Part shown: one piece after another, positions 6,126 to 64,000 of the stretch
How the letters are laid out: every line of letters begins with the position of its first letter
Numbering within the stretch: the stretch's first letter is position 1
DNA from: Psococerastis gibbosa
Taxonomy: Eukaryota > Arthropoda > Insecta > Psocodea > Psocidae
DNA length: 64,000 nucleotides
Assembly: GCA_963971405.1 (NCBI GenBank)
Contig: OZ020489.1
Span: 20,610,290 to 20,674,289, forward strand
Reading direction: 5' to 3'
Program-made: the position numbers and the translations under genes
Notes under the pieces: generated by a model
Told to the model about the DNA's origin: nothing
Database searches by the model: none
Seen by the model: only the letters and a program-made list of their open reading frames with translations

Positions 6126-6499
6126 GCATGCGTTTGGACAAAAAAATATCGATGGCGCAGCAACAAAGGCCTGTAAGAGAGTATGCATGTTGAAAAGATT
6201 AGCAGGTACCACTTGGGGTGCAACGCAAGATGTCCTAGTCACCAACTACAAATCATACATAAGACCCCTTATTTAATACTGCTGCGAAGCCTTCTGTACA
6301 GCAAGTGTCGCTAACATGCGAAAACTGGACATTGCCCGAAATAATGCGCTGAAAGCTATCAGTGGGGCTGCCAAATCCACCCCTATCACAGCCTTGGAGT
6401 GTCAAACAGACATTGAACCACTAGAGTTGCGCCGCGACTGTACAACCCTTAAATTCTTTGAAGGAGGAGGAAGACTTCTGGAAACGTTGCCTTGCTTTT
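6126..6499 (+). mobile_element. LINE 3' tail, U1
   Basis: The plus frame reads MLKRLAGTTWGATQDVLVTNYKS YIRPLI, then a TAA, then YCCEAFCTASVANMRKLDIARNNALKAI and AAKSTPITALECQTDIEPLELRRDCTTLKFF. This is the region after the RT thumb in Jockey/RTE-like LINEs (RLAGT.WG, Y.S.IRP.IEY, GA.KSTPI..L). The stop replaces the Glu codon present in the copy at 54.1 kb, and all array copies have a stop at this codon. The 5' portion is absent because the copy starts at J1. Confidence 0.8.
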
Positions 6500-8136
6500 C
6501 CTTTCTTGGATGTCTTTTTTTATTTTTTCCACAATGGTTTGAAGAGGAGATGGGCCGTGACTTCCTGGTGGCTTCCTTGATACAACTTTTTTATTATTTG
6601 TAGTCGGATCCACACGTTTCATTTTGGTTAAGGCAACTCGCGATCGGAGAAACGGCATAGTATTTGCTGGCTTCTCTTCATTGCCTGGACCCCGCGTTGA
6701 CATTGTTTTAATTTAGTTTCTCGCGGCCGTCTTGTTCAACTGTTTAACTGTTAGGGTTTTAGTACCAATAATAAACCTGCCACGTCGATGGAGGCCTTTA
6801 GTTTCATCAACAAATCAATGCCTATAAGGCACTGTTGCCTCAGACCCTTAAGAAGGTTGAACCGATGGTTGACCATACGGGAACCAAGTTAAACTCGCTG
6901 CCAGGCGGTTCCCACGAGCTCTGCGTGCAATGAAGAGTCGGCTAACTTTACTCGACCAGACGTAGGCGTCACCCGGAAGCCACTCGTAACCAAAATGTCC
7001 CAGTAAGGGGCTGCTATTAGGGAAGAATTAGCGCCCGTGTCTACCAGCGTCGGAAAAAACGTTTCCCCTATTTTGACACGTAAGAAAGGTCACTCAGCCA
7101 GCCCTACACATGCCAGCTCGATCTGCTCTGGCGCTGGAAAAGTAATCCTTAATATAATCCGCATATTCGGGATGTGGAGGGTCCATGTCATCGGTGGTGT
7201 TGCTGGTTCCGTGGTTAGCGGTCTTCCAGTATTTCGCCCTCTGACTTTGTGGGCACTCACTGTGTTCATCCACGCCCTTTTGGCCACAATATCCGCAAAA
7301 TTCACGGCGGGCGGCCCCTCAATCTTAAAAAAAATGTTTTAGCGAATCGCAATTGTAACAAAGGCTCACCGCTGCTGCCTTTAAGTTGGTGTACGCATCG
7401 GCCATACATACATACGGTATTTTTGTCTGCCCAATATTAATTGTTGCTTCTATTTCTACACAGGCTGCCTCTAGTTGCCGGAAGCTGTAAACGTCCGCGA
7501 AAATCAACTTTTCTCTGTAGAGAGGCAACAGGTTGTTGCGCACAAGGTTGACCTCATCAATTCCGAATATTGGCCAAGAATTCTACTGATCTCTGCCCCG
7601 GTTTCATCTTCCTGTAGTAGCGCTGCGTCACCCCGGACGACAGTGAACGCCTCCTGGAATTCCAACTCTGCAGATCCGGTAAGTGCACTTCAAACCATGT
7701 TTTTGCCGTCCGAGAGAGAAGATCGATCTAGCAAGCCAGGATAGATTAAATCCATCGGAAGTCCTGATTTGCTTGCCTCTCAAAGTCTCGTACAAATTCT
7801 TCCTCCCAGAGATACAGATGTCTCGGGACTGACAGACGCCCAGAAATTTAACCAGGGGCTTCCTGTAGCCACTCATGTCTGTCGAATGCCGGAACGGGTC
7901 GTAAGAGCTGCCATGAAAGGGTTGCTGGTGTTGCCAGGTCGGCGGTTGCTGCGGCATATGTGGCGGCGGTGGCTGTTGCCAGCCTGTTGCTTGTGACGGC
8001 TGGTGGGCACTCCGGTGCTGTGGTGGCGTATGCCAAGCTTGTGGAAACTGTTGCTGCGGCTGCTGTGTAACTGTCGCCCGAGGCGGCTGTTGGGCAGTCG
8101 GCTGCTGCAGTGGAGCACTCCACTGCGGTGGCATCG
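6500..8136 (-). mobile_element. gag-pro fossil, U1 (Ty3/gypsy-like)
   Basis: On the minus strand it carries a Gln/Pro-rich region, RNNLLPLYREKLIFADVYSF, a Cys-rich segment, a retropepsin signature (DTGANSSLI) and a QQCLIGIDLLMKL segment. In Ty3/gypsy elements these belong to gag (particle shell) and protease. It is broken (several breaks), with no LTR, RT or integrase. Close similarity between units points to recent copying as satellite DNA, not to recent transposition. Confidence 0.65.
8107..8126. repeat. Hairpin beside J1 (9-bp arms, 2-base loop)
   Basis: GCAGTGGAG and CTCCACTGC are exact inverted 9-mers separated by CA. The hairpin ends 10 bases before the GCATGC of J1 (8137). It sits at the same place (J1-30 to J1-11) in the eleven units whose J1 is at 8137, 10028, 11919, 17313, 22681, 28038, 33348, 37347, 41243, 43134 and 45025. 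The J1 copies at 6126, 48608 and 57217 lack it. The hairpin belongs to the gag-derived side and also occurs at the R2 and R3 boundaries (about 50468-50487 and 59055-59074). Confidence 0.85.
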
Positions 8137-8510
8137 GCATGCGTTTGGACAAAAAAATATCGATGGCGCAGCAACAACGGCCTGCAAGAGAGTATGCATG
8201 TTGAAAAGATTAGCAGGTACCACTTGGGGTGCAACGCAAGATGTCCTAGTCACCAACTACAAATCATACATAAGACCCCTTATTTAATACTGCTGCGAAG
8301 CCTTCTGTACAGCAAGTGTCGCTAACATGCGAAAACTGGACATTGCCCGAAATAATGCGCTGAAAGCTATCAGTGGGGCTGCCAAATCCACCCCTATCAC
8401 AGCCTTGGAGTGTCAAACAGACATTGAACCACTAGAGTTGCGCCGCGACTGTACAACCCTTAAATTCTTTGAAGGAGGAGGAAGACTTCTGGAAACGTTG
8501 CCTTGCTTTT
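8137..8510 (+). mobile_element. LINE 3' tail, U2
   Basis: Same content as the U1 tail, with the shared TAA after YIRPLI. It reads ATTACKRVC where U1 reads ATKACKRVC. Confidence 0.8.
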
Positions 8511-10027
8511 CCTTTCTTGGATGTCTTTTTTTATTTTTTCCACAATGGTTTGAAGAGGAGATGGGCCGTGACTTCCTGGTGGCTTCCTTGATACAACTTT
8601 TTTATTATTTGTAGTCGGATCCACACGTTTCATTTTGGTTAAGGCAACTCGCGATCGGAGAAACGGCATAGTATTTGCTGGCTTCTCTTCATTGCCTGGA
8701 CCCCGCGTTGACATTGTTTTAATTTAGTTTCTCGCGGCCGTCTTGTTCAACTGTTTAACTGTTAGGGTTTTAGTACCAATAATAAACCCGCCACGTCGAT
8801 GGAGGCCTTTAATTTCATCAACAAATCAATGCCTATAAGGCACTGTTGCCTCAGACCCTTAAGAAGGTTGAACCGATGGTTGAACATACGGGAACCAAGT
8901 TAAACTCGCTGCCAGGCGGTTCCCACGAGCTCTGCGTGCAATGAAGAGTTGGCTAACTTTACTCGACCAGACGTAGGCGTCACCCGGAAGCCACTCGTAA
9001 CCAAAATGTCCCAGTAAGGGGCTGCTATTAGGGAAGAATTAGCGCCCGTGTCTACCAGCGTCGGAAAAAACGTTTCCCCTATTTTGACACGTAAGAAAGG
9101 TCACTCAGCCAGCCCTACACATGCCAGCTCGATCTGCTCTGGCGCCGGAAAAGTAATCCTTAATATTATCCGCAAATTCGGGATGTGGAGCGTCCATGTC
9201 ATCGGGCGGCCCCACAATCTTTAAAATAATGTGTAGCGAATCGCAATTGTAACAAAGATTCACCGCTGCTGCCTTGTTGGTGTACGCATCGGCCATACTT
9301 ACATACGGTATTTTTGTCTGCCAAATATTAATTGTTGCTTCTATTTCTGCACAGGCTGCCTCTAGTTGCCGGAAGATGTAGACGTCCGCGAAAATCAACT
9401 TTTCTCTGTAGAGAGGCAACAGGTTGTTGCGCACAAGGTTGACCTCATCAATTCCGAATATTGGCCAAGAATTCTACTGATCTCTGCCCCGGTGTCATCT
9501 TCCTGTTGTAGCGCTGCGTCACCCCGGACGACGGTAAACGCCTCCTGGAATTCCAACTTTGCAGATCCGGTAAGTGCACTTCAAACCATGTTTTTGTCGT
9601 CCGAGAGAGAAGATCGATCTAGCAAACCGGGATAGATTAAATCCATGGGAAGTCCTGATTTGCTTGCCTTTCAAAGTCTCGTACAAATTCTTCCTCCCAG
9701 AGATACAGATGTCTCGGGACTGACAGACGCCCAGAAATTTAACCAGGGGCTTCCTGTAGCCACTCATGTCTGTCGAATGCCGGAACGGGTCGTAAGAGCT
9801 GCCATGAAAGGGTTGCTGGTGTTGCCAGGTCGGCGGTTGCTGCGGCATATGTGGCGGCGGTGGCTGTTGCCAGCCTGTTGCTTGTGACGGCTGGTGGGCA
9901 CTCTGGTGCTGTGGTGGCGTATGCCAAGCTTGTGGAAACTGTTGCTGCGGCTGCTGTGTAACTGTCGCCCGAGGCGGCTGTTGGGCAGTCGGCTGCTGCA
10001 GTGGAGCACTCCACTGCGGTGGCATCG
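8511..10027 (-). mobile_element. gag-pro fossil, U2
   Basis: Same parts as in U1, in the 1.5 kb form. Its capsid-like segment belongs to the a class (CAEIEATINIWQTK). Broken. Confidence 0.65.
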
Positions 10028-10401
10028 GCATGCGTTTGGACAAAAAAATATCGATGGCGCAGCAACAACGGCCTGCAAGAGAGTATGCATGTTGAAAAGA
10101 TTAGCAGGTACCACTTGGGGTGCAACGCAAGATGTCCTAGTCACCAACTACAAATCATACATAAGACCCCTTATTTAATACTGCTGCGAAGCCTTCTGTA
10201 CAGCAAGTGTCGCTAGCATGCGAAAACTGGACATTGCCCGAAATAATGCGCTGAAAGCTATCAGTGGGGCTGCCAAATCCACCCCTATCACAGCCTTGGA
10301 GTGTCAAACAGACATTGAACCACTAGAGTTGCGCCGCGACTGTACAACCCTTAAATTCTTTGAAGGAGGAGGAAGACTTCTGGAAACGTTGCCTTGCTTT
10401 T
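10028..10401 (+). mobile_element. LINE 3' tail, U3
   Basis: Essentially the U2 tail, with one difference just before the MRKLD codon (GCTAGCATG instead of GCTAACATG). Confidence 0.8.
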
Positions 10402-11918
10402 CCTTTCTTGGATGTCTTTTTTTATTTTTTCCACAATGGTTTGAAGAGGAGATGGGCCGTGACTTCCTGGTGGCTTCCTTGATACAACTTTTTTATTATT
10501 TGTAGTCGGATCCACACGTTTCATTTTGGTTAAGGCAACTCGCGATCGGAGAAACGGCATAGTATTTGCTGGCTTCTCTTCATTGCCTGGACCCCGCGTT
10601 GACATTGTTTTAATTTAGTTTCTCGCGGCCGTCTTGTTCAACTGTTTAACTGTTAGGGTTTTAGTACCAATAATAAACCCGCCACGTCGATGGAGGCCTT
10701 TAATTTCATCAACAAATCAATGCCTATAAGGCACTGTTGCCTCAGACCCTTAAGAAGGTTGAACCGATGGTTGAACATACGGGAACCAAGTTAAACTCGC
10801 TGCCAGGCGGTTCCCACGAGCTCTGCGTGCAATGAAGAGTTGGCTAACTTTACTCGACCAGACGTAGGCGTCACCCGGAAGCCACTCGTAACCAAAATGT
10901 CCCAGTAAGGGGCTGCTATTAGGGAAGAATTAGCGCCCGTGTCTACCAGCGTCGGAAAAAACGTTTCCCCTATTTTGACACGTAAGAAAGGTCACTCAGC
11001 CAGCCCTACACATGCCAGCTCGATCTGCTCTGGCGCCGGAAAAGTAATCCTTAATATTATCCGCAAATTCGGGATGTGGAGCGTCCATGTCATCGGGCGG
11101 CCCCACAATCTTTAAAATAATGTGTAGCGAATCGCAATTGTAACAAAGATTCACCGCTGCTGCCTTGTTGGTGTACGCATCGGCCATACTTACATACGGT
11201 ATTTTTGTCTGCCAAATATTAATTGTTGCTTCTATTTCTGCACAGGCTGCCTCTAGTTGCCGGAAGATGTAGACGTCCGCGAAAATCAACTTTTCTCTGT
11301 AGAGAGGCAACAGGTTGTTGCGCACAAGGTTGACCTCATCAATTCCGAATATTGGCCAAGAATTCTACTGATCTCTGCCCCGGTGTCATCTTCCTGTTGT
11401 AGCGCTGCGTCACCCCGGACGACGGTAAACGCCTCCTGGAATTCCAACTTTGCAGATCCGTTAAGTGCACTTCAAACCATGTTTTTGTCGTCCGAGAGAG
11501 AAGATCGATCTAGCAAACCGGGATAGATTAAATCCATGGGAAGTCCTGATTTGCTTGCCTTTCAAAGTCTCGTACAAATTCTTCCTCCCAGAGATACAGA
11601 TGTCTCGGGACTGACAGACGCCCAGAAATTTAACCAGGGGCTTCCTGTAGCCACTCATGTCTGTGGAATGCCGGAACGGGTCGTAAGAGCTGCCATGAAA
11701 GGGTTGCTGGTGTTGCCAGGTCGGCGGTTGCTGCGGCATATGTGGCGGCGGTGGCTGTTGCCAGCCTGTTGCTTGTGACGGCTGGTGGGCACTCTGGTGC
11801 TGTGGTGGCGTATGCCAAGCTTGTGGAAACTGTTGCTGCGGCTGCTGTGTAACTGTCGCCCGAGGCGGCTGTTGGGCAGTCGGCTGCTGCAGTGGAGCAC
11901 TCCACTGCGGTGGCATCG
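10402..11918 (-). mobile_element. gag-pro fossil, U3
   Basis: a-class block, nearly identical to the U2 block. Broken. Confidence 0.65.
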
Positions 11919-12292
11919 GCATGCGTTTGGACAAAAAAATATCGATGGCGCAGCAACAAAGGCCTGTAAGAGAGTATGCATGTTGAAAAGATTAGCAGGT
12001 ACCACTTGGGGTGCAACGCAAGATGTCCTAGTCACCAACTACAAATCATACATAAGACCCCTTATTTGATACTGCTGCGAAGCCTTCTGTACAGCAAGTG
12101 TCGCTAACATGCGAAAACTGGACATTGCCCGAAATAATGCGCTGAAAGCTATCAGTGGGGCTGCCAAATCCACCCCTATCACAGCCTTGGAGTGTCAAAC
12201 AGACATTGAACCACTAGAGTTGCGCCGCGACTGTACAACCCTTAAATTCTTTGAAGGAGGAGGAAGACTTCTGGAAACGTTGCCTTGCTTTT
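11919..12292 (+). mobile_element. LINE 3' tail, U4
   Basis: The stop after YIRPLI is TGA here rather than TAA. U5 shares this private change, which links U4 and U5 as a recent pair. Confidence 0.8.
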
Positions 12293-13800
12293 CCTTTCTT
12301 GGATGTCTTTTTTTATTTTTTCCACAATGGTTTGAAGAAGAGATGGGCCGTGACTTCCTGGTGGCTTCCTTGATACAACTTTTTTATTATTTGTAGTCGG
12401 ATCCACACGTTTCATTTTGGTTAAGGCAACTCGCGATCGGAGAAACGGCATAGTATTTGCTGGCTTCTCTTCATTGCCTGGACCCCGCGTTGACATTGTT
12501 TTAATTTAGTTTCTCGCGGCCGTCTTGTTCAACTGTTTAACTGTTAGGGTTTTAGTACCAATAATAAACCTGCCACGTCGATGGAGGCCTTTAATTTCAT
12601 CAACAAATCAATGCCTATAAGGCACTGTTGCCTCAGACCCTTAAGAAGGTTGAACCGATGGTTGACCATACGGGAACCAAGTTAAACTCGCTGCCAGGCG
12701 GTTCCCACGAGCTCTGCGTGCAATGAAGAGTCGGCTAACTTTACTCGACCAGACGTAGGCGTCACCCGGAAGCCACTCGTAACCAAAATGTCCCAGTAAG
12801 GGGCTGCTATTAGGGAAGAATTAGCGCCCGTGTCTACCAGCGTCGGAAAAAACGTTTCCCCTATTTTGACACGTAAGAAAGGTCACTCAGCCAGCCCTAC
12901 ACATGCCAGCTCGATCTGCTCTGGCGCTGGAAAAGTAATCCTTAATATAATCCGCATATTCGGGATGTGGAGGGTCCATGTCATCGGTGGTGTTGCTGGT
13001 TCCGTGGTTAGCGGTCTTCCAGTATTTCGCCCTCTGACTTTGTGGGCACTCACTGTGTTCATCCACGCCCTTTTGGCCACAATATCCGCAAAATTCACGG
13101 CGGGCGGCCCCTCAATCTTAAAAAAAATGTTTTAGCGAATCGCAATTGTAACAAAGGCTCACCGCTGCTGCCTTTAAGTTGGTGTACGCATCGGCCATAC
13201 ATACATACGGTATTTTTGTCTGCCCAATATTAATTGTTGCTTCTATTTCTACACAGGCTGCCTCTAGTTGCCGGAAGCTGTAAACGTCCGCGAAAATCAA
13301 CTTTTCTCTGTAGAGAGGCAACAGGTTGTTGCGCACAAGGTTGACCTCATCAATTCCGAATATTGGCCAAGAATTCTACTGATCTCTGCCCCGGTTTCAT
13401 CTTCCTGTAGTAGCGCTGCGTCACCCCGGACGACAGTGAACGCCTCCTGGAATTCCAACTCTGCAGATCCGGTAAGTGCACTTCAAACCATGTTTTTGCC
13501 GTCCGAGAGAGAAGATCGATCTAGCAAGCCAGGATAGATTAAATCCATCGGAAGTCCTGATTTGCTTGCCTCTCAAAGTCTCGTACAAATTCTTCCTCCC
13601 AGAGAAACAGATGTCTCGGGAACGACAGACGCCCAGAAATTTAACCAGGGTCTTCCTGTAGCCACTCATGTCTTTCGAATGCCGGAACGGGTCGTAAGAG
13701 CGGCCATAAAAGGGTTGCTGGTGTTGCCAGGTCGGCGGTGGCTGTGGCCAGCCTGTTGTTTGACGGCTGGTGGGCACTCTGGTGCTGTGGTGGCGTATGC
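12293..13800 (-). mobile_element. gag-pro fossil, U4 block b
   Basis: b-class block (CVEIEATINIGQTK, DTGANSSLI). Its upstream end joins segment M at CGTATGC instead of continuing the Gln/Pro-rich region to J1. Broken. Confidence 0.65.
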
Positions 13801-15797
13801 TTCGTTTGGTCGTTTAGTTTTCGTTCTATTCCCTCTATATACTGTTGGAGGTCACAATCGTCTAACCATCCATCCTGCGTTCTCATGTCGGGAGTATTAA
13901 TTGCCTGTATAGTACTATAGTGTTTAGGTCCACGGCTTGAGCAGGTGTCAAGTGCAGAGTCTGTTTTCTCTGACGCAGTGGCCTCAGCTGTCACAATTTG
14001 TTTTGACGTACAGGTAATTAGCCACAGCTGATTCCATTCATCGATGTTTTTGTTTGTTGTTGCCACTATAAATCTTGAAAGAGAGTCATCGGCAGCAGCT
14101 GTTATGTATTTCAAAGATTGTTTGTGCTTACTAATGGCAGCAATAGCATGTGGAACGCTGTGGTAGATGTGATTTTCCTCACGATTTAGCCTTACAATCG
14201 CTATGTTGTCTGTGCAACCACCCTGCAGTTCATGGTCAGTATAACATTGATTTCCATATTCCTGTACTCCCTGCTTGATTAACTCTCCTTTTTTCAATTT
14301 TAGTGAAAGTAAGGTATATATTGTTTGGATAATTTGGCAATGGCGTGTTTTGGCTAATCGGGATTTGTTCAAGTGACGTCACTACTTTGATTGTAGTGTG
14401 AATGTTTTTGTATAAATCTTTTAATGCAAAGCATAGGTCAGCGGGGCAGCGATGTGTGGTCGATATTTCCTCTGTAATTTTGCCCCATATATATCAGGCC
14501 TATGGAATTTTAAACCAGAGGGGCACACTTTTTCCCTGTCCAGGTTAGGAATTGGGTTGGAGTGCCCGAGTACCAGTATTTCTTTGCACTCAGCTTTGAT
14601 GGCAGAAACTCATAAAGATCCGGCATGGAGTAGCTATCCCTTGTCTACTATGACCCTATCAAATTTTATTTCGGAGCCGTTAATTAGGATTGATGCGACA
14701 GTCCTGTAGTCTTTTTGGAGAACGGCCCGCTTTATACCGTACGCATTCGTTACAGCATGTATCACGGACTTGACTCCTTCTCTGGTCGCTGTTAAAATTT
14801 TAAATCCTTCCCAGGGATATGGTTTTTTATAACCTAAGTCGTTTTTCCACAACCCGAATCCATTTCCGAACAGTCATCTAGCCCGATTTCTATGACTTTG
14901 CCCAGGCTTGCTATTTCTTCTGAAAGTGGTTTTAATATCGTCGATTATGTGCCTATTTTGTCCTTTGTCAAGTCAGCAATTACTATTGGCTTCCTGTTGT
15001 GGCCTAAGATAGCCTTACATGTCACTTGGTTTAGTTTTAAGGTTGGTAGTCTGTTGAAGTCATCCTGCTGCAGCCGCTTTTTTTGTGTGGGGAAAGCAGC
15101 GTGCTAGCCCACGTGAGATGTCATATTTGCCCTCTCTACCTTTATTGGCAAATGAAATTGTCAAATGGACCTTTTCGTGCAAGCAGTAAGTAGAGGTCAC
15201 CAGGGTTTTCTTACCTACATGGAATTGTTCGTGGCTACTAGGTACTTATTCCAGTCATCACTTGATACAGGTTTAAAGTGTGGCTTTTTTACTGGTGATA
15301 AGCTAATAAGATATTTATTAGGGAACGCTTTAGGGATAGTGGCCTCTTTCCAGCAAAGAAGGGTTTGATGCTTACTTGCCATTTGGTGAGTTTGTATCGT
15401 CACCGTCTCCAGCTGACCGGGTGGCTTAGTTTGTGTGCCGTGGTTGCTACTGCTGTTGCGTGGCTCAGTTTGGGGTGCTCTGTGGCGGCTGCTGCTGAAT
15501 GGCACAGTTTGCTTGGCTGCCTCATTGTTCCGGTGGTCTCTTTGGATTCCAACTTCGACAAATATCTTGCTTGGTGCAATTATTTGTGAGGTTTGTGTGG
15601 CTCCATCTCGGGTCTGGTTGTTTAAGCCAATCGTCTTTGCTTGCTTGCTTCTGCATTTCTGCATTTTTCTCTTAAGTCGTCTAGAAAAGGTTTTCTCTTT
15701 CCTTTGTGGCTTTATGCTCAACTTCACACGGTTTGTGCACTTCCTCCTGTGTCATGGATTCTTTGGGGGATATGGAGTCCGTCGTATCACCTATCCC
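13801..15797 (-). mobile_element. Segment M + linker L, U4 (unrecognised, gag-adjacent)
   Basis: M (13801-15113) continues an open minus-strand frame into the Gln/Pro-rich edge. The 243-codon frame 13641-14372 begins with TTG two codons after a stop, so its true start is unknown. Its product is hydrophilic (SRFIVATTNKNIDEWNQL, WLDDCDLQQYIEGIERKL) and I do not recognise it. A second frame (14634-14852: YPWEGFKILTATREG) is also unrecognised. L (15114-15797) corresponds to the linker of copy 0 at 3.24-3.7 kb. It is treated as part of the LTR fossil or its flank. Broken. Confidence 0.4.
14374..14381. promoter_or_regulatory. TGACGTCA palindrome (CRE/ATF-type site) in segment M
   Basis: An 8-bp perfect palindrome equal to the consensus cAMP-response element. 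The same site is in each M copy that reaches this far (19768, 25136, 30493, 34481, 39720), and independently at 52387-52394 in the R2 insertion and its R3 counterpart. Function is not shown; repeats carry it by descent. Confidence 0.3.
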
Positions 15798-17312
15798 TTC
15801 TTTCTTGGATGTCTTTTTTTATTTTTCCACAATGGTTTGATGAGGAGATGGGCCGTGACTTCCTGGTGGCTTCCTTGATACAACTTTTATATTATTTGTA
15901 TTCGAATCCACACGTTTCGTCTCGGTTAAGGCAGCTTTCGATCGGAGAAACGGAATAGTATTTGCTGGCTTTTCTTCATTACCTTGACCCCGCGTCGACA
16001 TTGTTTTAATTTAATCTCTCGCGTCCGTCTTGTTCAACTGTTTCTGTAAGGGTTTAAGTACCAATTATGAACCTGCCACGTCGATAGAGGCCTTTAATTT
16101 CAACAGCAAATCAATGCCTATAAGGCACGGTTGCCTCAGACCCTTAAGAAGGTTGAACCGATGGTTGATCATACGGGAACCAACTTAAACTCGCTGCCAG
16201 GCGGTTCCCACGAGCTCTGCGTGCAATGAAGAGTCGGCTAACTTTACTCGACCAGACGTAGGCGTCACCCAGAAGCCCCTCGTAACCAACATGTCCCAGT
16301 AAGGGGCTGCTATTAGGGCAGAATTAGCGCCCGTGTCTGCCAGCGTCGGAAATAACGTTTCCCCCATTTTGACACGTAAGAAAGGTCACTCAGCCAGCCC
16401 TACACATGCCAGCTCGATCTGCTCTGGCGCCGGAAAAGTAATCCTTAATATTATCCGCAAATTCGGGATGTGGAGCGTCCATGTCATCGGGCGGCCCCAC
16501 AATCTTTAAAATAATGTGTAGCGAATCGCAATTGTAACAAAGATTCACCGCTGCTGCCTTGTTGGTGTACGCATCGGCCATACTTACATACGGTATTTTT
16601 GTCTGCCAAATATTAATTGTTGCTTCTATTTCTGCACAGGCTGCCTCTAGTTGCCGGAAGATGTAGACGTCCGCGAAAATCAACTTTTCTCTGTAGAGAG
16701 GCAACAGGTTGTTGCGCACAAGGTTGACCTCATCAATTCCGAATATTGGCCAAGAATTCTACTGATCTCTGCCCCGGTGTCATCTTCCTGTTGTAGCGCT
16801 GCGTCACCCCGGACGACGGTAAACGCCTCCTGGAATTCCAACTTTGCAGATCCGGTAAGTGCACTTCAAACCATGTTTTTGTCGTCCGAGAGAGAAGATC
16901 GATCTAGCAAACCGGGATAGATTAAATCCATGGGAAGTCCTGATTTGCTTGCCTTTCAAAGTCTCGTACAAATTCTTCCTCCCAGAGATACAGATGTCTC
17001 GGGACTGACAGACGCCCAGAAATTTAACCAGGGGCTTCCTGTAGCCACTCATGTCTGTGGAATGCCGGAACGGGTCGTAAGAGCTGCCATGAAAGGGTTG
17101 CTGGTGTTGCCAGGTCGGCGGTTGCTGCGGCATATGTGGCGGCGGTGGCTGTTGCCAGCCTGTTGCTTGTGACGGCTGGTGGGCACTCTGGTGCTGTGGT
17201 GGCGTATGCCAAGCTTGTGGAAACTGTTGCTGCGGCTGCTGTGTAACTGTCGCCCGAGGCGGCTGTTGGGCAGTCGGCTGCTGCAGTGGAGCACTCCACT
17301 GCGGTGGCATCG
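15798..17312 (-). mobile_element. gag-pro fossil, U4 block a
   Basis: a-class block with the retropepsin signature DTGANSALI at 16311-16337 and the complete Gln/Pro-rich end up to J1 (variant a1). Broken. Confidence 0.65.
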
Positions 17313-53338: not shown

Positions 53339-53689
53339 AAGGACAACAATAAATTTAAATTGCAAAGAAAATCCGCCAAAACAATATCGAGTGAATTACG
53401 TTAAAACCACGTCATAAACGGGGCAATAGATGAATATGAATAGAAAATTTCCAGAAACAAGTATGGCTGACTCCAAGAAAAATTGTACCAAAACTAATTA
53501 TTTTTATTTAAAATAACAGTTAAAACCCCAGCCGGGAACTTCCTATTCCGTTTTCACAAATGCAACAACAAAATATAATGTGAGAGTGACAAGAAATTAC
53601 TACGGTAAGTACTGAGAAAACCATTATATTGACAAAACCAGTGGCCTAAGACCGGGCCCTCCAAACAGACTTTAAAAGATTGATAAACG

Positions 53690-54262: not shown

Positions 54263-55603
54263 AAAAAAAATTCAAAATATGCGCTCGTCCTACCAAAAAC
54301 AGCTGAGGATGGTAAGTGATAATTTAATTTCCTAATGACAATAATGCAACTGAAGTGACCTCGCGGACAAAAAGTGCAGGCATTAGGCTAAACCGGGGCC
54401 TGCATTTCTTGCTAGGCTATTAATAACTTTTTTTTAATTACACCATAGCATTAGGCTTCCGCCATCAGCTTTCTTGCAGCCCAATACAACACATAATCTG
54501 GTGAACCTCTGCTACTGGCAAGAGCCTGGCACGTGCTCTCTCTGAACCGCAATTTTTATGCTATATATGCATATGCCTACTTTTTGACGTTTAGAAGAGT
54601 TATTTTACAACTTTACATAGAGCTTGGCGAAATTATAGTATTTTTGGTCCATTTAAAAAATAAATATAGTAGTACAGGGCCCGAAAAAATCTCAAAATAT
54701 AGTATGTGTTTAGTGTACACGGTGGTTAAAAAATCGTTGCATCACAACAGCCCATTTACGGCTCAGGCCTGAGGAGTAGTAGGGCACACTCTTTCAAGAC
54801 CTCGGCACAAGTTGGGGTGTTGTGGTCAGCAACTCGCCCGGTAGCACTATCAGGAAGAAGTGAACCCTGTTTCCTATCCATGGAAGTGGTCGTATTTCGA
54901 CGCCATCAGCGCGTCAAATTTATACTGGGACAAGAATTTTCTACCTACTGAGATTTAAAGTCTACATGCCCGATTGCTATTGCTGTAGTATGTGTTATGT
55001 TAAATCTTCATGAGATTACCAATCCGGTGCCAGTAAAATTTACTGTGAGTTGGTTGTTAAAGTTTATTCAAATGAAAACTTCCTTAGGCCGACAGATTTT
55101 ACAATAGTTACGTTAATATAAGTTTTATTGGTATAAATATATTAATATTTTTTTATTTTGGGTGAAGGCACTGGCACTGGAGTGGATGATATCCACGTGC
55201 AAAAACTTTGGTACTTCAGCCATCTCCATTTCATGAATGAATGAGCTCAACGAACAAGCAAAACAACCTCTTCAATTATTGAAGATTTACCGTTCGGAGA
55301 AAATGAGGTGAGAAACAACAGTTGCTTAATTTTTCACCATTTATTTAGTTAAGGTAACTTAAAAGCTGATTTCTTTAAACATTTAGCCTAATTGTCTGCC
55401 GACGCAACAAATGACGACGTCCCTGTCATAGCCCTCTTTTTGCGTCTTGCCAGTGCACTTGCCCTTCCCCAACGAAATATTCTGCAAACTTTTCGCGCAC
55501 AAGCTTTGCTGACATACTTGCATTTCTCGATAAAGTGCACTGAAGGCTGGGTTGTAAATTATACTCTTCATTTTCCTCACCAGTGTCTTCTACGTTGTAT
55601 GAG
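54263..55603. other. Apparently noncoding tail of R2
   Basis: No protein family is recognised. A donor-like GGTAAGTGAT lies at 54311, a 7-bp-stem hairpin (TGCAGGC/GCCTGCA) at 54375-54404, and a 79-codon frame at 54533-54772 starts with GTG and looks like chance. The rest is AT-rich. R3 carries it almost unchanged, and it is absent from R1. Confidence 0.5.
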
Positions 55604-55737
55604 CTGCCAAATCCACCCCTATCACAGCCTTGGAGTGTCAAACAGACATTGAACCACTAGAGTTGCGCCGCGACTGTACAACCCTTAAATTCTTTGAAGG
55701 AGGAGGCAGACTTCTGGAAACGTTGCCTTGCTTTTCC
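55604..55737 (+). mobile_element. Partial LINE 3' tail at right edge of R2
   Basis: Enters at GCTGCCAAATCC (frame AAKSTPITALECQTDIEPLELRRD) straight from R2 sequence, without J1. It gives a second, independent join between R and the LINE tail. Confidence 0.8.
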
Positions 55738-57216
55738 TTTCTTGGATGTCTTTTTTTATTTTTTCCACAATGGTTTGAAGAGGAGATGGGCCGAGACTTC
55801 CTGGTGGCTTCCTTGATAAATTTTTTTTATTATTTGTAGTCGCATCCACACGTTTCATTTTGGTTAAGGCAACTCGCGATCGGAGAAACGGCATAGTATT
55901 TGCTGGCTTCTCTTCATTGCCTGGACCCCGCGTTGACATTGTTTTAATTTAGTTTCTCGCGGCCGTCTTGTTCAACTGTTTAACTGTTAGGGTTTTAGTA
56001 CCAATAATAAACCTGCCACGTCGATGGAGGCCTTTAATTTCATCAACAAATCAATGCCTATAAGGCACTGTTGCCTCAGGCCCTTAAGAAGGTTGAACCG
56101 ATGGTTGACCATACGGGAACCAAGTTAAACTCGCTGCCAGGCGGTTCCCACGTGCTCTGCGTGCAATGAAGAGTCGGCTAACTTTACTCGACCAGACGTA
56201 GGCGTCACCCGGAAGCCACTCGTAACCAAAATGTCCCAGTAAGGGGCTGCTATTAGGGAAGAATTAGCGCCCGTGTCTACCAGCGTCGGAAAAAACGTTT
56301 CCCCTATTTTGACACGTAAGAAAGGTTACTCAGCCAGCCCTACACATGCCAGCTCGATCTGCTCTGGCGCTGGAAAAGTAATCCTTAATATAATCCGCAT
56401 ATTCGGGATGTGGAGGGTCCATGTCATCGGGCGGCCCCACAATCTTTAAAATAATGTGTAGCGAATCGCAATTGTAACAAAGATTCACCGCTGCTGCCTT
56501 GTTGGTGTACGCATCGGCCATACTTACATACGGTATTTTTGTCTGCCAAATATTAATTGTTGCTTCTATTTCTGCACAGGCTGCCTCTAGTTGCCGGAAG
56601 ATGTAGACGTCCGCGAAAATCAACTTTTCTCTGTAGAGAGGCAACAGGTTGTTGCGCACAAGGTTGACCTCATCAATTCCGAATATTGGCCAAGAATTCT
56701 ACTGATCTCTGCCCCGGTGTCATCTTCCTGTAGTAGCGCTGCGTCACCCCGGACGACGGTAAACGCCTCCTGGAATTCCAACTTTGCAGATCCGGTAAGT
56801 GCACTTCAAACCATGTTTTTGTCGTCCAAGAGAGAAGATCGATCTAGCAAACCGGGATAGATTAAATCCATGGGAAATCCTGATTTGCTTGCCTCTCAAA
56901 GTCTCGTACAAATTCTTCCTCCCAGAGATACAGATGTCTCGGGACTGACAGACGCCCAGAAATTTAACCAGGGGCTTCCTGTAGCCACTCATGTCTGTCG
57001 AATGCCGGAACGGGTCGTAAGAGCTGCCATGAAAGGGTTGCTGGTGTTGCCAGGTCGGCGGTTGCTGCGGCATATGTGGCGGCGGTGGCTGTGGCCAGCC
57101 TGTTGCTTGTGACGGCTGGTGGGCACTCTGGTGCTGTGGTGGCGTATGCCAAGCTTGTGAAAACTGTTGCTGCGGCTGCTGTGTAACTGTCGCCCGAGGC
57201 GGCTGTTGGGCAGTCG
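55738..57216 (-). mobile_element. gag-pro fossil, U13 right block
   Basis: Follows the partial LINE tail at the right edge of R2 and runs to the short-form J1 at 57217. It shares private variants with the U14 block. Broken. Confidence 0.65.
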
Positions 57217-57590
57217 GCATGCGTTTGGACAAAAAAATATCGATGGCGCAGCAACAAAGGCCTGTAAGAGAGTATGCATGTTGAAAAGATTAGCAGGTAC
57301 CACTTGGGGTGCAACGCAAGATGTCCTAGTCACCAACTACAAATCTTACATAAGACCCCTTATTTAATACTGCTGCGAAGCCTTCTGTACAGCAAGTGTC
57401 GCTAACATGCGAAGACTGGACATTGCCGGAAATAATGCGCTGAAAGCTATCAGTGAGGCTGCCAAATCCACCCCTATCACAGCCTTGGAGTGTCAAACAG
57501 ACATTGAACCACTAGAGTTGCGCCGCGACTGTACAACCCTTAAATTCTTTGAAGGAGGAGGCAGACTTCTGGAAACGTTGCCTTGCTTTT
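57217..57590 (+). mobile_element. LINE 3' tail, U14
   Basis: Like U13, with a private Arg-to-Gly change (MRRLDIAGNN). Confidence 0.8.
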
Positions 57591-59085
57591 CCTTTCTTGG
57601 ATGTCTTTTTTTATTTTTTCCACAATGGTTTGAAGAGGAGATGGGCCGAGACTTCCTGGTGGCTTCCTTGATAAATTTTTTTTATTATTTGTAGTCGCAT
57701 CCACACGTTTCATTTTGGTTAAGGCAACTCGCGATCGGAGAAACGGCATAGTATTTGCTGGCTTCTCTTCATTGCCTGGACCCCGCGTTGACATTGTTTT
57801 AATTTAGTTTCTCGCGGCCGTCTTGTTCAACTGTTTAACTGTTAGGGTTTTAGTACCAATAATAAACCTGCCACGTCGATGGAGGCCTTTAATTTCATCA
57901 ACAAATCAATGCCTATAAGGCACTGTTGCCTCAGGCCCTTAAGAAGGTTGAACCGATGGTTGACCATACGGGAACCAAGTTAAACTCGCTGCCAGGCGGT
58001 TCCCACGTGCTCTGCGTGCAATGAAGAGTCGGCTAACTTTACTCGACCAGACGTAGGCGTCACCCGGAAGCCACTCGTAACCAAAATGTCCCAGTAAGGG
58101 GCTGCTATTAGGGAAGAATTAGCGCCCGTGTCTACCAGCGTCGGAAAAAACGTTTCCCCTATTTTGACACGTAAGAAAGGTTACTCAGCCAGCCCTACAC
58201 ATGCCAGCTCGATCTGCTCTGGCGCTGGAAAAGTAATCCTTAATATAATCCGCATATTCGGGATGTGGAGGGTCCATGTCATCGGGCGGCCCCACAATCT
58301 TTAAAATAATGTGTAGCGAATCGCAATTGTAACAAAGATTCACCGCTGCTGCCTTGTTGGTGTACGCATCGGCCATACTTACATACGGTATTTTTGTCTG
58401 CCAAATATTAATTGTTGCTTCTATTTCTGCACAGGCTGCCTCTAGTTGCCGGAAGATGTAGACGTCCGCGAAAATCAACTTTTCTCTGTAGAGAGGCAAC
58501 AGGTTGTTGCGCACAAGGTTGACCTCATCAATTCCGAATATTGGCCAAGAATTCTACTGATCTCTGCCCCGGTGTCATCTTCCTGTAGTAGCGCTGCGTC
58601 ACCCCGGACGACGGTAAACGCCTCCTGGAATTCCAACTTTGCAGATCCGGTAAGTGCACTTCAAACCATGTTTTTGTCGTCCAAGAGAGAAGATCGATCT
58701 AGCAAACCGGGATAGATTAAATCCATGGGAAATCCTGATTTGCTTGCCTCTCAAAGTCTCGTACAAATTCTTCCTCCCAGAGATACAGATGTCTCGGGAC
58801 TGACAGACGCCCAGAAATTTAACCAGGGGCTTCCTGTAGCCACTCATGTCTGTCGAATGCCGGAACGGGTCGTAAGAGCTGCCATGAAAGGGTTGCTGGT
58901 GTTGCCAGGTCGGCGGTTGCTGCGGCATATGTGGCGGCGGTGGCTGTGGCCAGCCTGTTGCTTGTGACGGCTGGTGGGCACTCTGGTGCTGTGGTGGCGT
59001 ATGCCAAGCTTGTGGAAACTGTTGCTGCGGCTGCTGTGTAACTGTCGCCCGAGGCAGTGGAGCACTCCACTGCGGTGGCATCGGC
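57591..59085 (-). mobile_element. gag-pro fossil, U14
   Basis: Repeats the previous block at an offset of 1855 bp and passes into R3 with the gag leader side retained. Broken. Confidence 0.65.
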
Positions 59086-59513
59086 TTATGTGGTCTGGCC
59101 GCGTTCCCTGTCGTCTCCTGCATTGACATGACATAAACGTCCTCATATTGACACAACGATAATGAAAATAAATTGTTATAATTAATACTAAAATATGTTT
59201 TCCCGTTTCCAGGTATACCCAAGAATTAAAAATATTCAAGAACGTGGAAGCACTCAAAATTACATAGGAAAATCCCGGGCTTAATAACCAAATCGGGAAG
59301 ACAAAATCCTCAATCTCAAGAGGAGCCAAACAACCAGTCGCAAGATGACAGCGACTAACAATCAAAATGTGCAATCACTTATACATAGAACATTATAATA
59401 TCTATAATAATATCAGCTTGTATTATAATCTATACAACCACCTGCCTACCTACACGGTTATTGTTTATAAACCTGTAAAATTACAGCCAGTGATAGAGCA
59501 TAGACATTCAGAA

Positions 59514-59783
59514 ACTATGTCTACTCCCTCCACTGGCGGTAACCGAATGGAAAAAAAGGATCAGGTTAAAATCGCAGCAGTATGGAACCATGTCGGTGAC
59601 AGAACACAACCGATGAGTGCCCATACAACTGCGAATCATCCGGGAAGGAACAGCAATGGAAGGACAAAATCCCCTTCCCGCGACGCTATTCCGGACAATA
59701 TAAATCCTGATGATGAAGTGTATATGAAACGGGCCCATTTGAAAGTAAAGGGCCGTGCCTACCAAAGTGGAGAAAATCATTAG
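59514..59783 (+). CDS. Hypothetical ORF in R3 (MSTPSTGGNRMEKK...)
   Basis: Like the R2 frame, ending GRAYQSGENH, with few replacements. No recognised family. Confidence 0.25.
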   Translation, partial: TMSTPSTGGNRMEKKDQVKIAAVWNHVGDRTQPMSAHTTANHPGRNSNGRTKSPSRDAIPDNINPDDEVYMKRAHLKVKGRAYQSGENH

Positions 59784-59848
59784 AAGGGAAAGTTAGGAAA
59801 GAAAGGGGAAGGGAAAGGAAAGAAAGGGAAGGGAAAGGGAAGGGAAAC
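59784..59848 (+). repeat. Purine minisatellite in R3
   Basis: A GGAAAG/GGGAAA array, longer than in R2. Confidence 0.85.
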
Positions 59849-59881
59849 AACAGAACAGTCCAAGCACCCAAACGCGTAGGC

Positions 59882-61354
59882 GCCACTTGTGAAATTTTAT
59901 TTAATATTCATAACTTTGGAAAATAAATAATCTGATCTCTTATTATAATAACTTCCTTTAATTATTGTTAAGCTTTGTCTTCTTCTTCTTCCGGCTCTAC
60001 AGCCCTTGGTGGGCTTTGGCCTGCTCGACAACACTCCTCCATTCTTCTTGGTTTTGCACAACGCTCCACCATCTGGAGACTCCCAACTCGCGAAGGTCAT
60101 TCTCTAACTCGTCCTTCCAGCGGTTTCTTGGCCGTCCTGGCAGTTGTCTTCCCGTCATGCTTGCTTTGTACATTTTTCGTGGCATGCGTTCTTCAGACAT
60201 CCTTACAACGTGTCCCAGCCACCTTAATCGTTGTGCTTTAATGAACCTTACTATGTCTTCTCCGTTGAGAGCGGCGTCGATTTCAGCGTTGTTTCTTATA
60301 CGCCATTCTCCGTACTCGTAAAGGAAAGCTTTGTGATGGTCGAAATTTTCGATTCCGAGATTTCAACGGATTTACACGTTTTGAGGTCCCAGGAACCCAA
60401 AAAAGTGGTTTTTACAAAATGTCGGTCTGTCTGTCTGTTCGTCGATTTCCGGGCAAACTACTCAGTGGATTTGAGTGAAATTTGGCATGTAGGTTCACAA
60501 AAATCATACCTCGGGACCATTTTTTTTTTTTTGTGCTAACTCAATTTGGGGGGGTTTTATTTTCAAAAAACTCCAAAAAAACGCCTAAAAAATTTATTTC
60601 TCAAAAACGGCTCCAACGATTTCTTTTAAATTCTCGTAGATTGTAGTCGTTATTAATGTTGACAAAATGCGGGGGGTCGCTTGCCCCTTGATAGTTTGCT
60701 TCTGGGGGTTATAAAATAAAAATAACTAAATTTTAATGAAAAAATGACTAAAAAATGCGAAACCTTTCTATCGATGATTTCTACCTTCAAGCATGTTTTA
60801 GGTGTTAAATTGAGTAACGAAACCGGATAGGTTGCTTTCCCAAAAAAATATTTGGTTTTGCCCAAAAAATTATTTTTTGAAAAAAATGATAGAAAATTCG
60901 CGCTCAAATGCATTGCATGCTCTGCCATTATTGCTGTGTGGTAATTAATGTGTTTGTTTGACCTATCGAGAATTCACCTCACTTCCAGTGACGTCAGGTG
61001 GACAACCGCCCCCCCCCCCCCCCCCGAGATATCGGAAATTTAACCATAGGAAAAATATTTGCCATAAAATTACTAATTTTCTCTATCTAATAATTTTGAT
61101 AAATTGGAAAGCATGTTCGAGTGAACTCGGACCGGTTCTTTGTACTGCTATTTCTTATTATTAAAACTGCGTGTGATCACTGGCGATTTCAAGGGGACCC
61201 CCCCCCCCCCTCTTACCTCTTACAGGCCGTAGCCAAGAGGGGCTTTTTGGGCTGCCCTCTGTGGTAGGTTGATTCGTCGGTAAAATCTCATCTGTACTGC
61301 TTGCAAAATGCGCAAATCCACCCAAATGTGAACCATTAATCAATTTTTTTCTCC
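59882..61354. repeat. 1.46 kb insertion in R3
   Basis: Same insertion and flanks as in R2. The C runs near 61008 (about 18) and 61198 are longer than in R2. Confidence 0.75.
59997..60321 (-). mobile_element. LINE 3' end, RTE-type C-terminus, in R3
   Basis: Identical by eye in protein frame to the R2 copy (GRPRNRWKDELENDLRELG...AKAHQGL). Confidence 0.85.
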
Positions 61355-61626
61355 GAGGGATACCCCCGGGTCTTCTTTCCCCAAGGTACATTATGCGTAA
61401 AACCTTACTGATTTAGGCCTATTGTACAATTGTTTTCTCCGGGGGGGGGGGGGGGAAGTGGCCTTTAAATGCTCCCCCCCCCTTTCGAAAAATTTTAAAC
61501 CGCCACTGCGTGTGATTATTCGATTCTTGCATCACTGATTTAGGAAAATTAGACTCTGAAAATTATGGATTACTTATTGAATATTAACATAGGGCTACTC
61601 TAGAAAGTTGCCGTTTTCTTAAACTG

Positions 61627-61947
61627 TTGACTGTCCTGATAGTCTCGGAAGCATGGAGCCTGATTAGCCTGGGATTGGTGTTAAAAGTTAAACGGGCTAG
61701 CCCAGTCGACAACCATGCTAATCTTACTCCAGCTTCTCACCTTCTCAACACAATCGAGAAATATACAGCTGCGGATGTCAAACTCATGTTGGATCCGCCA
61801 GAAAACCGGATCGCAGGGCGCTTGGCTCCAGAGCCGCACCCCGCCACTTGCGGAGACTCAACTCAAGCCTCAGGGAGCGTTAAGGTCAGAAAAATCAACC
61901 TGGACAAAATCTGCAACAACAAACTCTTTTATAATGCAAAATTATAA
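61627..61947 (+). CDS. Hypothetical open frame in R3
   Basis: Counterpart of 53018-53338 with a single Pro-to-Thr change seen. No recognised family. Confidence 0.25.
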   Translation: MTVLIVSEAWSLISLGLVLKVKRASPVDNHANLTPASHLLNTIEKYTAADVKLMLDPPENRIAGRLAPEPHPATCGDSTQASGSVKVRKINLDKICNNKLFYNAKL

Positions 61948-62298
61948 AAGGACAACAATAAATTTAAATTGCAAAGAAAATCCGCCAAAACAATATCGAG
62001 TGAATTACGTTAAAACCACGTCATAAACGGGGCAATAGATGAATATGAATAGAAAAATTCCAGAAACAAGTATGGCTGACTCCAAGAAAAATTGTACCAA
62101 AACTAATTATTTTTATTTAAAATAACAGTTAAAACCCCAGCCGGGAACTTCCTATTCCGTTTTCACAAATGCAACAACAAAATATAATGTGAGAGTGACA
62201 AGAAATTACTACGGTAAGTACTGAGAAAACCATTATATTGACAAAACCAGTTGCCTAAGACCGGGCCCTCCAAACAGACTTTAAAAGATTGATAAACG

Positions 62299-62871
62299 GC
62301 TTGATAATACAACTTAGAAGTATCCCCGGGATCGATGTTCTATGCTATGCAGACAACCTAACAATCTGGGGCACGTCCTGCAATATACAAGCCCTCGAGT
62401 GAGCACTGAACCAAGCCCTGCATGTCCTGAGAGCGTGGTGTGCGGAAAATGAGATGCTCTTCAGCAAAGGCAAAACTACTGCACAACTTTTCTCCCTGTC
62501 TACCAAGAACCACACAGTCAACTTAAAATACGACGACTGCGACATTGCCGTAGTTGCCAACTCCAAATACCTTTGCATGCTTTTGGACAACAAAATATCG
62601 ATGGCGCAGCAACAAAGGCCTGTAAGAGAGTATGCATGTTGAAAAGATTAGCAGTGGGGTGCAACGCAAGATGTCCTAGTCACCAACTACAAATCATACT
62701 GAAGACCCCTTATTGAATACTGCAGCGAAGCCTTCTGTACAGCAAGTGTCGCTAACATGCGAAAACTGGACATTGCCCGACTTAATGCGCTGAGAGCTAT
62801 CTGTGGGGCTGCCAAATCCACCCCTATCACAGCCTTGGAGTGTCAAACAGACATTGAACCACTAGAGTAGA
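62299..62871 (+). mobile_element. LINE RT region, longer copy in R3
   Basis: Repeats the R2 LINE region at an offset of 8609 bp, with YADN at 62346-62357, the same TGA and the same 8-base loss. The shared damage shows it arose by duplication of R, not by a second insertion. Confidence 0.85.
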
Positions 62872-64000
62872 AAAAAAAATTCAAAATATGCGCTCGTCCT
62901 ACCAAAAACAGCTGAGGATGGTAAGTGATAATTTAATTTCCTAATGACAATAATGCAACTGAAGTGACCTCGCGGACAAAAAGTGCAGGCATTAGGCTAA
63001 ACCAGGGCCTGCATTTCTTGCTAGGCTATTAATAACTTTTTTTTAATTACACCATAGCATTAGGCTTCCGCCATCAGCTTTCTTGCAGCCCAATACAACA
63101 CATAATCTGGTGAACCTCTGCTACTGGCAAGAGCCTGGCACGTGCTCTCTCTGAACCGCAATTTTTATGCTATATATGCATATGCCTACTTTTTGACGTT
63201 TAGAAGAGTTATTTTACAACTTTACATAGAGCTTGGCGAAATTATAGTATTTTTGGTCCATTTAAAAAATAAATATAGTAGTACAGGGCCCGAAAAAATC
63301 TCAAAATATAGTATGTGTTTAGTGTACACGGTGGTTAAAAAATCGTTGCATCACAACAGCCCATTTACGGCTCAGGCCTGAGGAGTAGTAGGGCACACTC
63401 TTTCAAGACCTCGGCACAAGTTGGGGTGTTGTGGTCAGCAACTCGCCCGGTAGCACTATCAGGAAGAAGTGAACCCTGTTTCCTATCCATGGAAGTGGTC
63501 GTATTTCGACGCCATCAGCGCGTCAAATTTATACTGGGACAAGAATTTTCTACCTACTGAGATTTAAAGTCTACATGCCCGATTGCTATTGCTGTAGTAT
63601 GTGTTATGTTAAATCTTCATGAGATTACCAATCCGGTGCCAGTAAAATTTACTGTGAGTTGGTTGTTAAAGTTTATTCAAATGAAAACTTCCTTAGGCCG
63701 ACAGATTTTACAATAGTTACGTTAATATAAGTTTTATTGGTATAAATATATTAATATTTTTTTATTTTGGGTGAAGGCACTGGCACTGGAGTGGATGATA
63801 TCCACGTGCAAAAACTTTGGTACTTCAGCCATCTCCATTTCATGAATGAATGAGCTCAACGAACAAGCAAAACAACCTCTTCAATTATTGAAGATTTACC
63901 GTTCGGAGAAAATGAGGTGAGAAACAACAGTTGCTTAATTTTTCACCATTTATTTAGTTAAGGTAACTTAAAAGCTGATTTCTTTAAACATTTAGCCTAA
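62872..64000. other. Apparently noncoding tail of R3
   Basis: Matches 54263-55391 closely. No gene recognised. Confidence 0.5.

What the first reader, a model, noticed from the sequence alone, without database searches (positions are those of the whole stretch)
6126..64000. Satellite-like array built from one fusion of two unrelated retroelement fragments
All 14 units start at the same J1 join between gag-derived sequence and LINE sequence, and all standard units share the same second join about 373 bp later. Independent insertions would not repeat the same two breakpoints. So one chimera formed once and was then amplified in tandem into higher-order units of 1.9, 3.6-4.0, 5.3-5.4 and 8.6 kb. 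Retroelement-derived satellites are known, but one joining a LINE tail to an LTR-element gag-pro piece with this layering looks unusual.
Basis: partly seen in the sequence, partly recalled or inferred. Interest (0 to 1): 0.75.

Follow-up and report, generated by a model that had tools for sequence, protein, structure and literature searches.

The report
Composite virus-and-transposon satellite array
In an arthropod-like genome, scraps of two kinds of jumping gene and of an ancient RNA virus were joined once and then copied in tandem on two chromosome-sized contigs, leaving the recombination steps readable.

Summary
The J1 14-mer occurs 89 times genome-wide: 88 on contig C14 within 657 kb, once on C13 in LINE context. 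A second array on C3 has 3393-bp units (gag-pro plus virus, no LINE piece, in the 7 kb read). The LINE|gag-side joint J2 and the virus|gag joint were found on both contigs and nowhere else (patterns, up to 1 mismatch), so they formed once, before the copies split. J1 looks like the C14 amplification joint. The 1.9-kb unit is not the founder: all 27 complete virus-less modules are recombinants of the two gag-pro modules of the 5.4-kb unit, while 20 of 20 virus-side and 17 of 17 partner modules are pure. Unequal exchange thus cut the virus part out. The subarrays lie in larger repeats with transposon-rich spacers on both contigs. This fits the recently proposed "composite satellite from a transposon graveyard", with unusually clear intermediates. 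Function was not tested; a small-RNA source is the boldest open reading.

The parts
1..2794 (-). Block left edge X; holds another LINE's reverse transcriptase (ORF 1019-1618)
   Evidence: PF00078 E 1.2e-17; repeated at C14:20287681 and in part on C13
2795..4393 (-). Older, diverged copies of D, B, C1 and C2 (86-96% identity) at the left edge
4394..6107 (.). Y: gag 5'-side sequence followed by LINE sequence; a 135-bp tandem repeat spans 4328-4605
6126..8136 (+). First unit (2011 bp, J1b start), no viral part, recombinant module with switch 1279-1313
8137..10027 (+). Short unit S = A B C1 C2 (1891 bp), switch 569-635
10028..11918 (+). Short unit S (1891 bp), switch 569-635
11919..17312 (+). Long unit T = A B i C1 C2' E D B C1 C2 (5394 bp)
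11919..12293 (+). A: 375-bp piece of a LINE, coding on the plus strand; J1 before it, J2 after it
   Evidence: A 1-370 lies in LINE context at C3:25839009-25839378; RNase H-like ORF downstream there, E 0.0039, below cut-off
12294..13748 (-). B-i-C1: first gag-pro-like module (minus strand)
   Evidence: DTGANS protease motif and CYNC knuckle read; PF13975 E 0.01, below cut-off, on the C3 copy; no gag model matched
13801..15115 (-). E: viral SF1 helicase fragment, joined in frame to truncated gag (ORF 13641-14378)
   Evidence: PF01443 E 1.3e-4; ToMV replicase 3vkw E 8e-4; 87% identity to C21:244447-244965 in a 1130-aa ORF; five in-frame stops in the 15 C14-locus matches that span profile 37/38-228
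15116..15799 (-). D: upstream part of the same viral replicase fragment
   Evidence: 82% identity to C21:242503-242931 in an ORF of 1130 aa, the one that holds the helicase
15800..17312 (-). Second gag-pro-like module with the native gag start side (C2)
17313..22680 (+). Long unit T (5368 bp), E from 19195
22681..28037 (+). Long unit T (5357 bp), E from 24563
28038..33347 (+). Long unit T (5310 bp), E from 29920, D with an internal deletion
33348..37346 (+). Deletion variant of T (3999 bp), first module truncated, E from 33908
37347..41242 (+). Deletion variant (3896 bp), J2 lost, E truncated (1-708 of 1315)
41243..45024 (+). Two short units S (1891 bp each), switch 569-635
45025..48607 (+). 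Deletion variant of T (3583 bp), E truncated (1-364 of 1315)
48608..50500 (+). Short unit with J1b, switch 680-819, last before the right edge
50501..55602 (.). Right edge Z-Ln-V: native gag 5' side, then LINE in LINE context (Ln, 53437-54259), then V
55603..59085 (+). Truncated unit (A 242-375 onward) and one short unit (J1b at 57217), both with switch 680-819
59086..64000 (.). Second copy of the right edge Z-Ln-V, running out of the window

Best explanation
It is a composite satellite-like array, probably in an arthropod genome. A cluster of dead elements (gag-pro of an LTR element, a fragment of a virga-like RNA-virus replicase, and a LINE) recombined into one block: LINE-A | gag-pro | virus | gag-pro with its native gag start. 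That block, with transposon-rich spacer, was copied in tandem and came to lie on two contigs, probably two chromosomes (C3 and C14). On C3 the sub-unit [gag-pro, virus] expanded in 3393-bp steps. On C14 the larger unit [LINE-A, gag-pro, virus, gag-pro] expanded in about 5.4-kb steps through a new joint, J1. Unequal exchange between the two gag-pro modules inside that unit repeatedly cut out the virus part, giving the 1.9-kb units, which spread too. SHOWN here: the three components, the shared joints, the two arrays, the larger repeats and the recombinant modules. INFERRED: the order of events, J1 as a duplication joint, unequal exchange rather than another homology-driven process, and the absence of a function.
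For: J1 14-mer: 88 of 89 genome matches lie in C14:20226056-20882619, the other is on C13 with LINE sequence upstream. J2: 99 matches at up to 1 mismatch, 93 on C14 (80 exact) and 6 on C3, all 6 with the same substitution. Virus|gag joint: 75 matches at up to 1 mismatch, 48 on C14 and 27 on C3. C3 units, in the 7 kb read, are B C1 C2' E D, copies 99.5% alike; joint spacing is 3393 in 19 of 26. Virus: E protein 87% and D protein 82% identical to one 1130-aa ORF on C21, whose helicase matches ToMV replicase at E 6e-33. Module test on the 64 complete modules of the C14 DNA fetched (two of them the references): 27 of 27 virus-less modules switch from first-module to second-module type (569-635 in 14, 680-819 in 8, five other intervals once each); 20 of 20 modules next to the virus part are pure type 1; 17 of 17 modules behind D are best fitted as pure type 2 (9 incomplete modules left out). 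Larger repeats: a spacer probe has 7 copies on C14 (2 partial) and 5 on C3 at 99-100%; C3 and C14 spacers align at 94-99% over 5.3 kb, and C14 spacer repeats at 99.5% over 7 kb.
Against: The order of events rests on identities (modules about 94%, C3 versus C14 E, D and spacer mostly about 98%, short units about 99%) that gene conversion could distort. Type-2 modules agree at only 58 of 70 to 70 of 70 sites and many short units carry a few opposite-type sites, so conversion or polymorphism plays a part. A C3 module is a mixture of both types (44 of 70 type 2 or better fit), so the two types are defined for C14 only. Only part of the 657-kb C14 locus and 17 kb of C3 were read. A diverged J1 on C3 was not searched for. 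The parent LTR element was not found intact, and gag-pro rests on motifs and sub-threshold Pfam matches. On C13 similarity to A ends at A position 99.
Confidence: 0.82

Rival explanations
1. One reading: a two-part LINE-gag chimera formed once at J1 and J2, and the 1.9-kb unit is the founder from which larger units were built.
For: J1 and J2 are each shared by nearly all C14 units.
Against: The exact J1 14-mer is absent from C3 while J2 and the virus|gag joint are there. Virus-less modules are recombinants of the two modules of the long unit (27 of 27), so the long unit came first. The gag side of J1 has two positions.
Confidence: 0.06
2. The virus helicase is a native accessory domain of a mobile LTR retrotransposon (as reported for some Diptera and Hymenoptera), so gag plus helicase is one ordinary element and only the LINE joint is a chimera.
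For: Helicase and gag are joined in frame (ORF 13641-14378). SF1 viral helicases fused to LTR-element proteins are in print (PMC6338049, passages). 38 of 76 PF01443 matches in this genome lie outside the C14 locus.
Against: All 75 virus|gag joints found lie in the two arrays (up to 1 mismatch). The other gag module has its own start side with no helicase. The fragment carries in-frame stops.
Confidence: 0.12
3. The array is a small-RNA (piRNA) source locus: tandem virus and transposon fragments in one orientation, kept because they supply antisense RNA against both.
For: The fragments share one orientation on C14 (74 of 88 J1 copies; the other 14 lie in one segment between 200-N runs) and on C3 (27 of 27 joints). 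Satellite-repeat piRNA loci and EVE-derived piRNAs are reported in mosquitoes (PMC7919454, passages).
Against: No expression or small-RNA data; tandem duplication alone gives uniform orientation.
Confidence: 0.12
4. Assembly artefact: a short repeat was falsely expanded.
For: 200-N runs bracket the only reverse-oriented segment, so scaffolding there is uncertain. No raw reads were available.
Against: Arrays with different unit make-up on two contigs, many distinct deletion variants, and recombinant modules with several switch points are not what false expansion gives.
Confidence: 0.04

Closest known systems
Composite satellite DNA from transposon graveyards (PMC12628747, section 7 read)
   Same: Monomer built of pieces of several elements, proposed to form by tandemisation in a cluster of dead elements
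   Different: There the pieces are short and hard to assign and the scenario is a proposal; here the pieces are long and mostly assignable, one is from an RNA virus, and related forms survive on three contigs
Retrotransposon-derived satellites of Lathyrus sativus (PMC7004042, abstract and outline seen)
   Same: Satellite arrays from LTR-retrotransposon sequence
   Different: Those grow from short tandem arrays inside LTR elements; here the unit spans unrelated elements
Viral SF1 helicases in insect retrotransposons (PMC4686597 abstract; PMC5563155 and PMC6338049 passages)
   Same: Virga/tobamo-like helicase sequence joined to retroelement coding sequence in insect genomes
   Different: Those passages describe elements with the conserved helicase motifs; here it is a broken fragment found joined to gag only in two tandem arrays
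Virga/nege-like endogenous viral elements of insects (Kondo 2017, seen only as a reference title; rest recalled)
   Same: Genome-integrated sequence of the same kind of virus
   Different: Tandem amplification as part of a satellite unit

Membership tests
Satellite DNA | Head-to-tail tandem arrays of near-identical units | tested here: met
   26 spacings of exactly 1891 bp and 27 of 5290-5460 bp among 86 on C14; 19 of 26 of 3393 bp on C3; 17 short units about 99.1% alike
Satellite DNA | Heterochromatic or centromeric location | not testable with these tools
   Arrays lie mid-contig on C3 and C14; no chromatin or cytology data
Composite TE-graveyard satellite (PMC12628747) | One monomer holds fragments of several different mobile elements | tested here: met
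   the gag-pro part is called on motifs and sub-threshold matches
Non-retroviral endogenous viral element, virga/tobamo-like | Similarity to a plus-strand RNA-virus replicase helicase | tested here: met
   PF01443 and 3vkw; close relative on C21 matches ToMV replicase at E 6e-33. PF01443 also rings in 11 of 14 control genomes, so Pfam alone would not do
Helicase-bearing LTR retrotransposon | Same gag-helicase joint in dispersed mobile copies | tested here: not met
   75 of 75 joints found are in the C3 and C14 arrays (up to 1 mismatch; diverged joints would be missed)
LTR retrotransposon gag-pro | Gag and aspartic protease domains at curated score | tested here: inconclusive
   Protease PF13975 E 0.01 below cut-off; no gag model matched
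piRNA cluster | Abundant 24-30-nt small RNAs | not testable with these tools
   no small-RNA data

The most novel reading that the evidence does not exclude
A captured RNA-virus replicase fragment and gag-pro were amplified together, in fixed orientation, into large arrays on two chromosomes because the locus works as a tunable store of antisense small RNAs against a virus and an LTR element; loss of the virus part by exchange in the short units would shift the dose from virus towards transposon.
Probability: 0.1. Interest if true: 0.82.

Novelty: new variant of a known kind. Interest (0 to 1): 0.5.

Why it matters
How satellites made of several unrelated elements arise is called an open question (PMC12628747). 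Here a low-copy relative (C13) and two arrays with different unit make-up (C3, C14) survive in one genome, and the unit types are linked by visible crossovers, so the steps can be tested instead of guessed. The RNA-virus component also shows how a viral fossil can be multiplied without transposing itself.

Tried and rejected
Rfam (gathering threshold) and tRNA scans of the window found nothing. Pfam on gag ORFs: no gag model matched. Searching the genome with the gag piece could not reveal the parent LTR element, because only 150 of 292 candidates were scored and the two arrays filled the listing; the searches with the whole unit and with A were capped too (15 of 169 and 40 of 124 scored). I first took the 14 reverse-oriented units for a biological inversion, but that segment is bracketed by two 200-N runs, so its orientation may be a scaffolding choice. 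I first took the J1 14-mer for the joint itself; it is LINE sequence next to it. A first crossover test that cut units at J1 gave 24 of 24 switching virus-less units and 3 of 21 misfits among virus-bearing ones; two of the misfits were intervals in which a short unit comes first because the next 14-mer is mutated, the third has a truncated module. I therefore recounted by module, which replaces those figures. General centromere satellite: J2 and the virus|gag joint were found only on C14 and C3, the J1 14-mer there and once on C13; not supported, not excluded. Paper searches on endogenous viral elements with tandem or satellite amplification (48 and 49 on virga-like elements) listed no title of a satellite unit holding an RNA-virus fragment; of most papers only titles and abstract starts were seen, and searches listed 15 of 54 and 15 of 148 papers. 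One paper id recalled from memory was wrong and opened an unrelated paper.
Full report
What was checked. The window is C14:20610290-20674289 of an unnamed 409-Mb genome in 68 contigs. TTAGG repeats are abundant (21,315 overlapping matches of a 25-mer), which fits an arthropod; that link is recalled, no call states it. The J1 14-mer occurs 14 times exactly in the window and 89 times in the genome: 88 on C14 between 20226056 and 20882619, and one on C13. The reversed control pattern gave 0 and 1.

Anatomy. Self-comparison and a segment map give these parts, in window coordinates of one long unit: A, LINE piece 11919-12293; B 12294-12987; i, 12988-13100; C1 13101-13748; a truncated C2; E 13801-15115; D 15116-15799; then a second B, C1 and C2 up to 17312. 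The short unit is A B C1 C2 (1891 bp). Gag-pro-like frames run on the minus strand; the LINE piece codes on the plus strand (ORF 48759-49142). The 14-mer is LINE sequence: the C13 copy, and window 53966 and 62575 with one mismatch, follow other LINE sequence, not gag. On C13 similarity to A stops at A position 99. On the gag side there are two joints 34 bp apart: 40 J1a and 6 J1b among 46 units in the DNA fetched. At J1a the gag and LINE sequences share 2-3 bases. At J2 five bases (TTTTC; TTATC on C3) stand between LINE and B and match neither neighbour seen.

The missed component. ORF 13641-14378 matches the viral SF1 helicase family (PF01443, 22.3 bits, cut-off 21) and tobamovirus ToMV replicase (3vkw, E 8e-4). 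Because PF01443 also rings in 11 of 14 control genomes, I looked for a better-preserved relative. E protein is 87% identical to C21:244447-244965 and D protein 82% identical to C21:242503-242931, both reported in a 1130-aa open frame. The C21 helicase stretch matches PF01443 at E 3.6e-33 and ToMV replicase at E 6e-33. So D and E are most simply one fragment of a virga/tobamo-like replicase. Of the 38 PF01443 matches in the C14 locus, the 15 that span profile 37/38-228 hold five in-frame stops each; the other 23 cover a shorter part. E is joined in frame to truncated gag.

A second array. The gag piece also hits C3:25588680-25887306. The 7 kb read there is [B C1 C2' E D] repeated, 3393 bp per unit, 99.5% alike, with E and D about 98% identical to C14. 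The virus|gag joint occurs 75 times at up to one mismatch, 48 on C14 and 27 on C3. J2 occurs 99 times at up to one mismatch: 93 on C14 (80 exact) and 6 on C3, all six with the same change; five of them lie one per block about 2 kb inside the left edges and one inside the fourth block (edges). The exact J1 14-mer is absent from C3; a diverged J1 was not searched. On C3 the right-edge LINE contains A positions 1-370 in LINE context, with a different continuation after A370. C13:10747501-10756206 is a low-copy relative of the block's left edge. The simplest order is J2 and the virus|gag joint first, then the split between C3 and C14, then J1 and the C14 expansion.

Origin of the short unit. In the C14 DNA fetched (window, forward block from 20287681, reverse segment) I took every complete B-C1 module, 64 in all, and compared it with the two modules of the unit at 11919 at 70 diagnostic sites, leaving out one site (position 46) at which short units carry the second-module base; nine incomplete modules were left out. 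Two of the 64 are the references themselves. Of 27 modules with A before them and A or Z after them (virus-less), all 27 switch from first- to second-module type: 14 at 569-635, 8 at 680-819, and one each at 273-290, 482-494, 494-523, 1103-1116 and 1279-1313. Of 20 modules between A and the virus part, all 20 are pure first type (64 of 70 to 70 of 70 sites). Of 17 modules behind D, all 17 fit best as pure second type (58 of 70 to 70 of 70 sites). The short units are therefore products of exchange between the two modules, which removes the virus part. The intervals need at least two events; some single ones may be gene conversion. A C3 module is a mixture of both types, so the types are C14-specific.

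Larger layers. On C14 the subarrays sit between a left edge (X-D-B-D-C1-C2-Y) and a right edge (Z-Ln-V), with seven gaps of 43-57 kb between J1 clusters. A spacer probe has 7 copies on C14, 2 of them partial, and 5 on C3, at 99-100% identity; the other listed matches are partial and at most 95% (40 of 650 candidates scored, so lower bounds). Spacer DNA of C3 and C14 aligns at 94-99% over the 5.3 kb compared, and spacer on C14 repeats at 99.5% over 7 kb. What I read of the spacers is transposon-rich: a DDE_Tnp_4 transposase at E 2.3e-31 and LINE pieces. I saw no evident gene, but exons could be missed. The one reverse-oriented segment (20220155-20279792) lies between two 200-N runs, so the inversion is unproved.

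How it most likely works. It is passive DNA that spreads by homology-driven exchange: tandem duplication, unequal exchange between modules, and homogenisation (17 short units average 99.1% identity, adjacent pairs 99.6%). I have no evidence for a coding function. A small-RNA role is open and untested.

What is known. Satellites from retroelements are described (PMC7004042, abstract and outline). Composite monomers from several elements are discussed as an open question with a proposed scenario (PMC12628747, section 7). Viral SF1 helicases joined to retroelement proteins are known in insects (PMC4686597 abstract; PMC5563155 and PMC6338049 passages). The listings showed no report of an RNA-virus fragment as part of a satellite unit; most of those papers I saw only as titles and abstract starts. 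I file it as a new variant of a known kind.

Noticed in passing
C21:242503-244965 (L041 = C21:243901-244965): A virus-like helicase lies in a 1130-aa open frame, the closest relative found of the broken copies in the array.
   Followed up: partly
C13:46535807, C15:34168472, C21:933441, C21:1057163: Four helicase copies with equal family scores sit in 685-687-aa open frames on three contigs, which suggests a recently spread or conserved family.
   Followed up: no
C14:20219955-20220154 and 20279793-20279992: Two runs of exactly 200 N bracket the only reverse-oriented part of the array; they look like scaffold gaps.
   Followed up: partly
window 4328-4605; L038: A short tandem repeat (135 bp in the window; related copies about 156 bp apart on C13) lies in the gag 5' region of the block edge.
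   Followed up: no
C14:20197002-20197337 and 20203598-20204080: Two open frames left of the array look like exons of an ordinary host gene; no family search was made.
   Followed up: no
C3 25.54-25.89 Mb of 50.3 Mb; C14 20.2-20.9 Mb of 46.5 Mb: Both arrays lie near the middle of their contigs, which could mean pericentromeric DNA.
   Followed up: no
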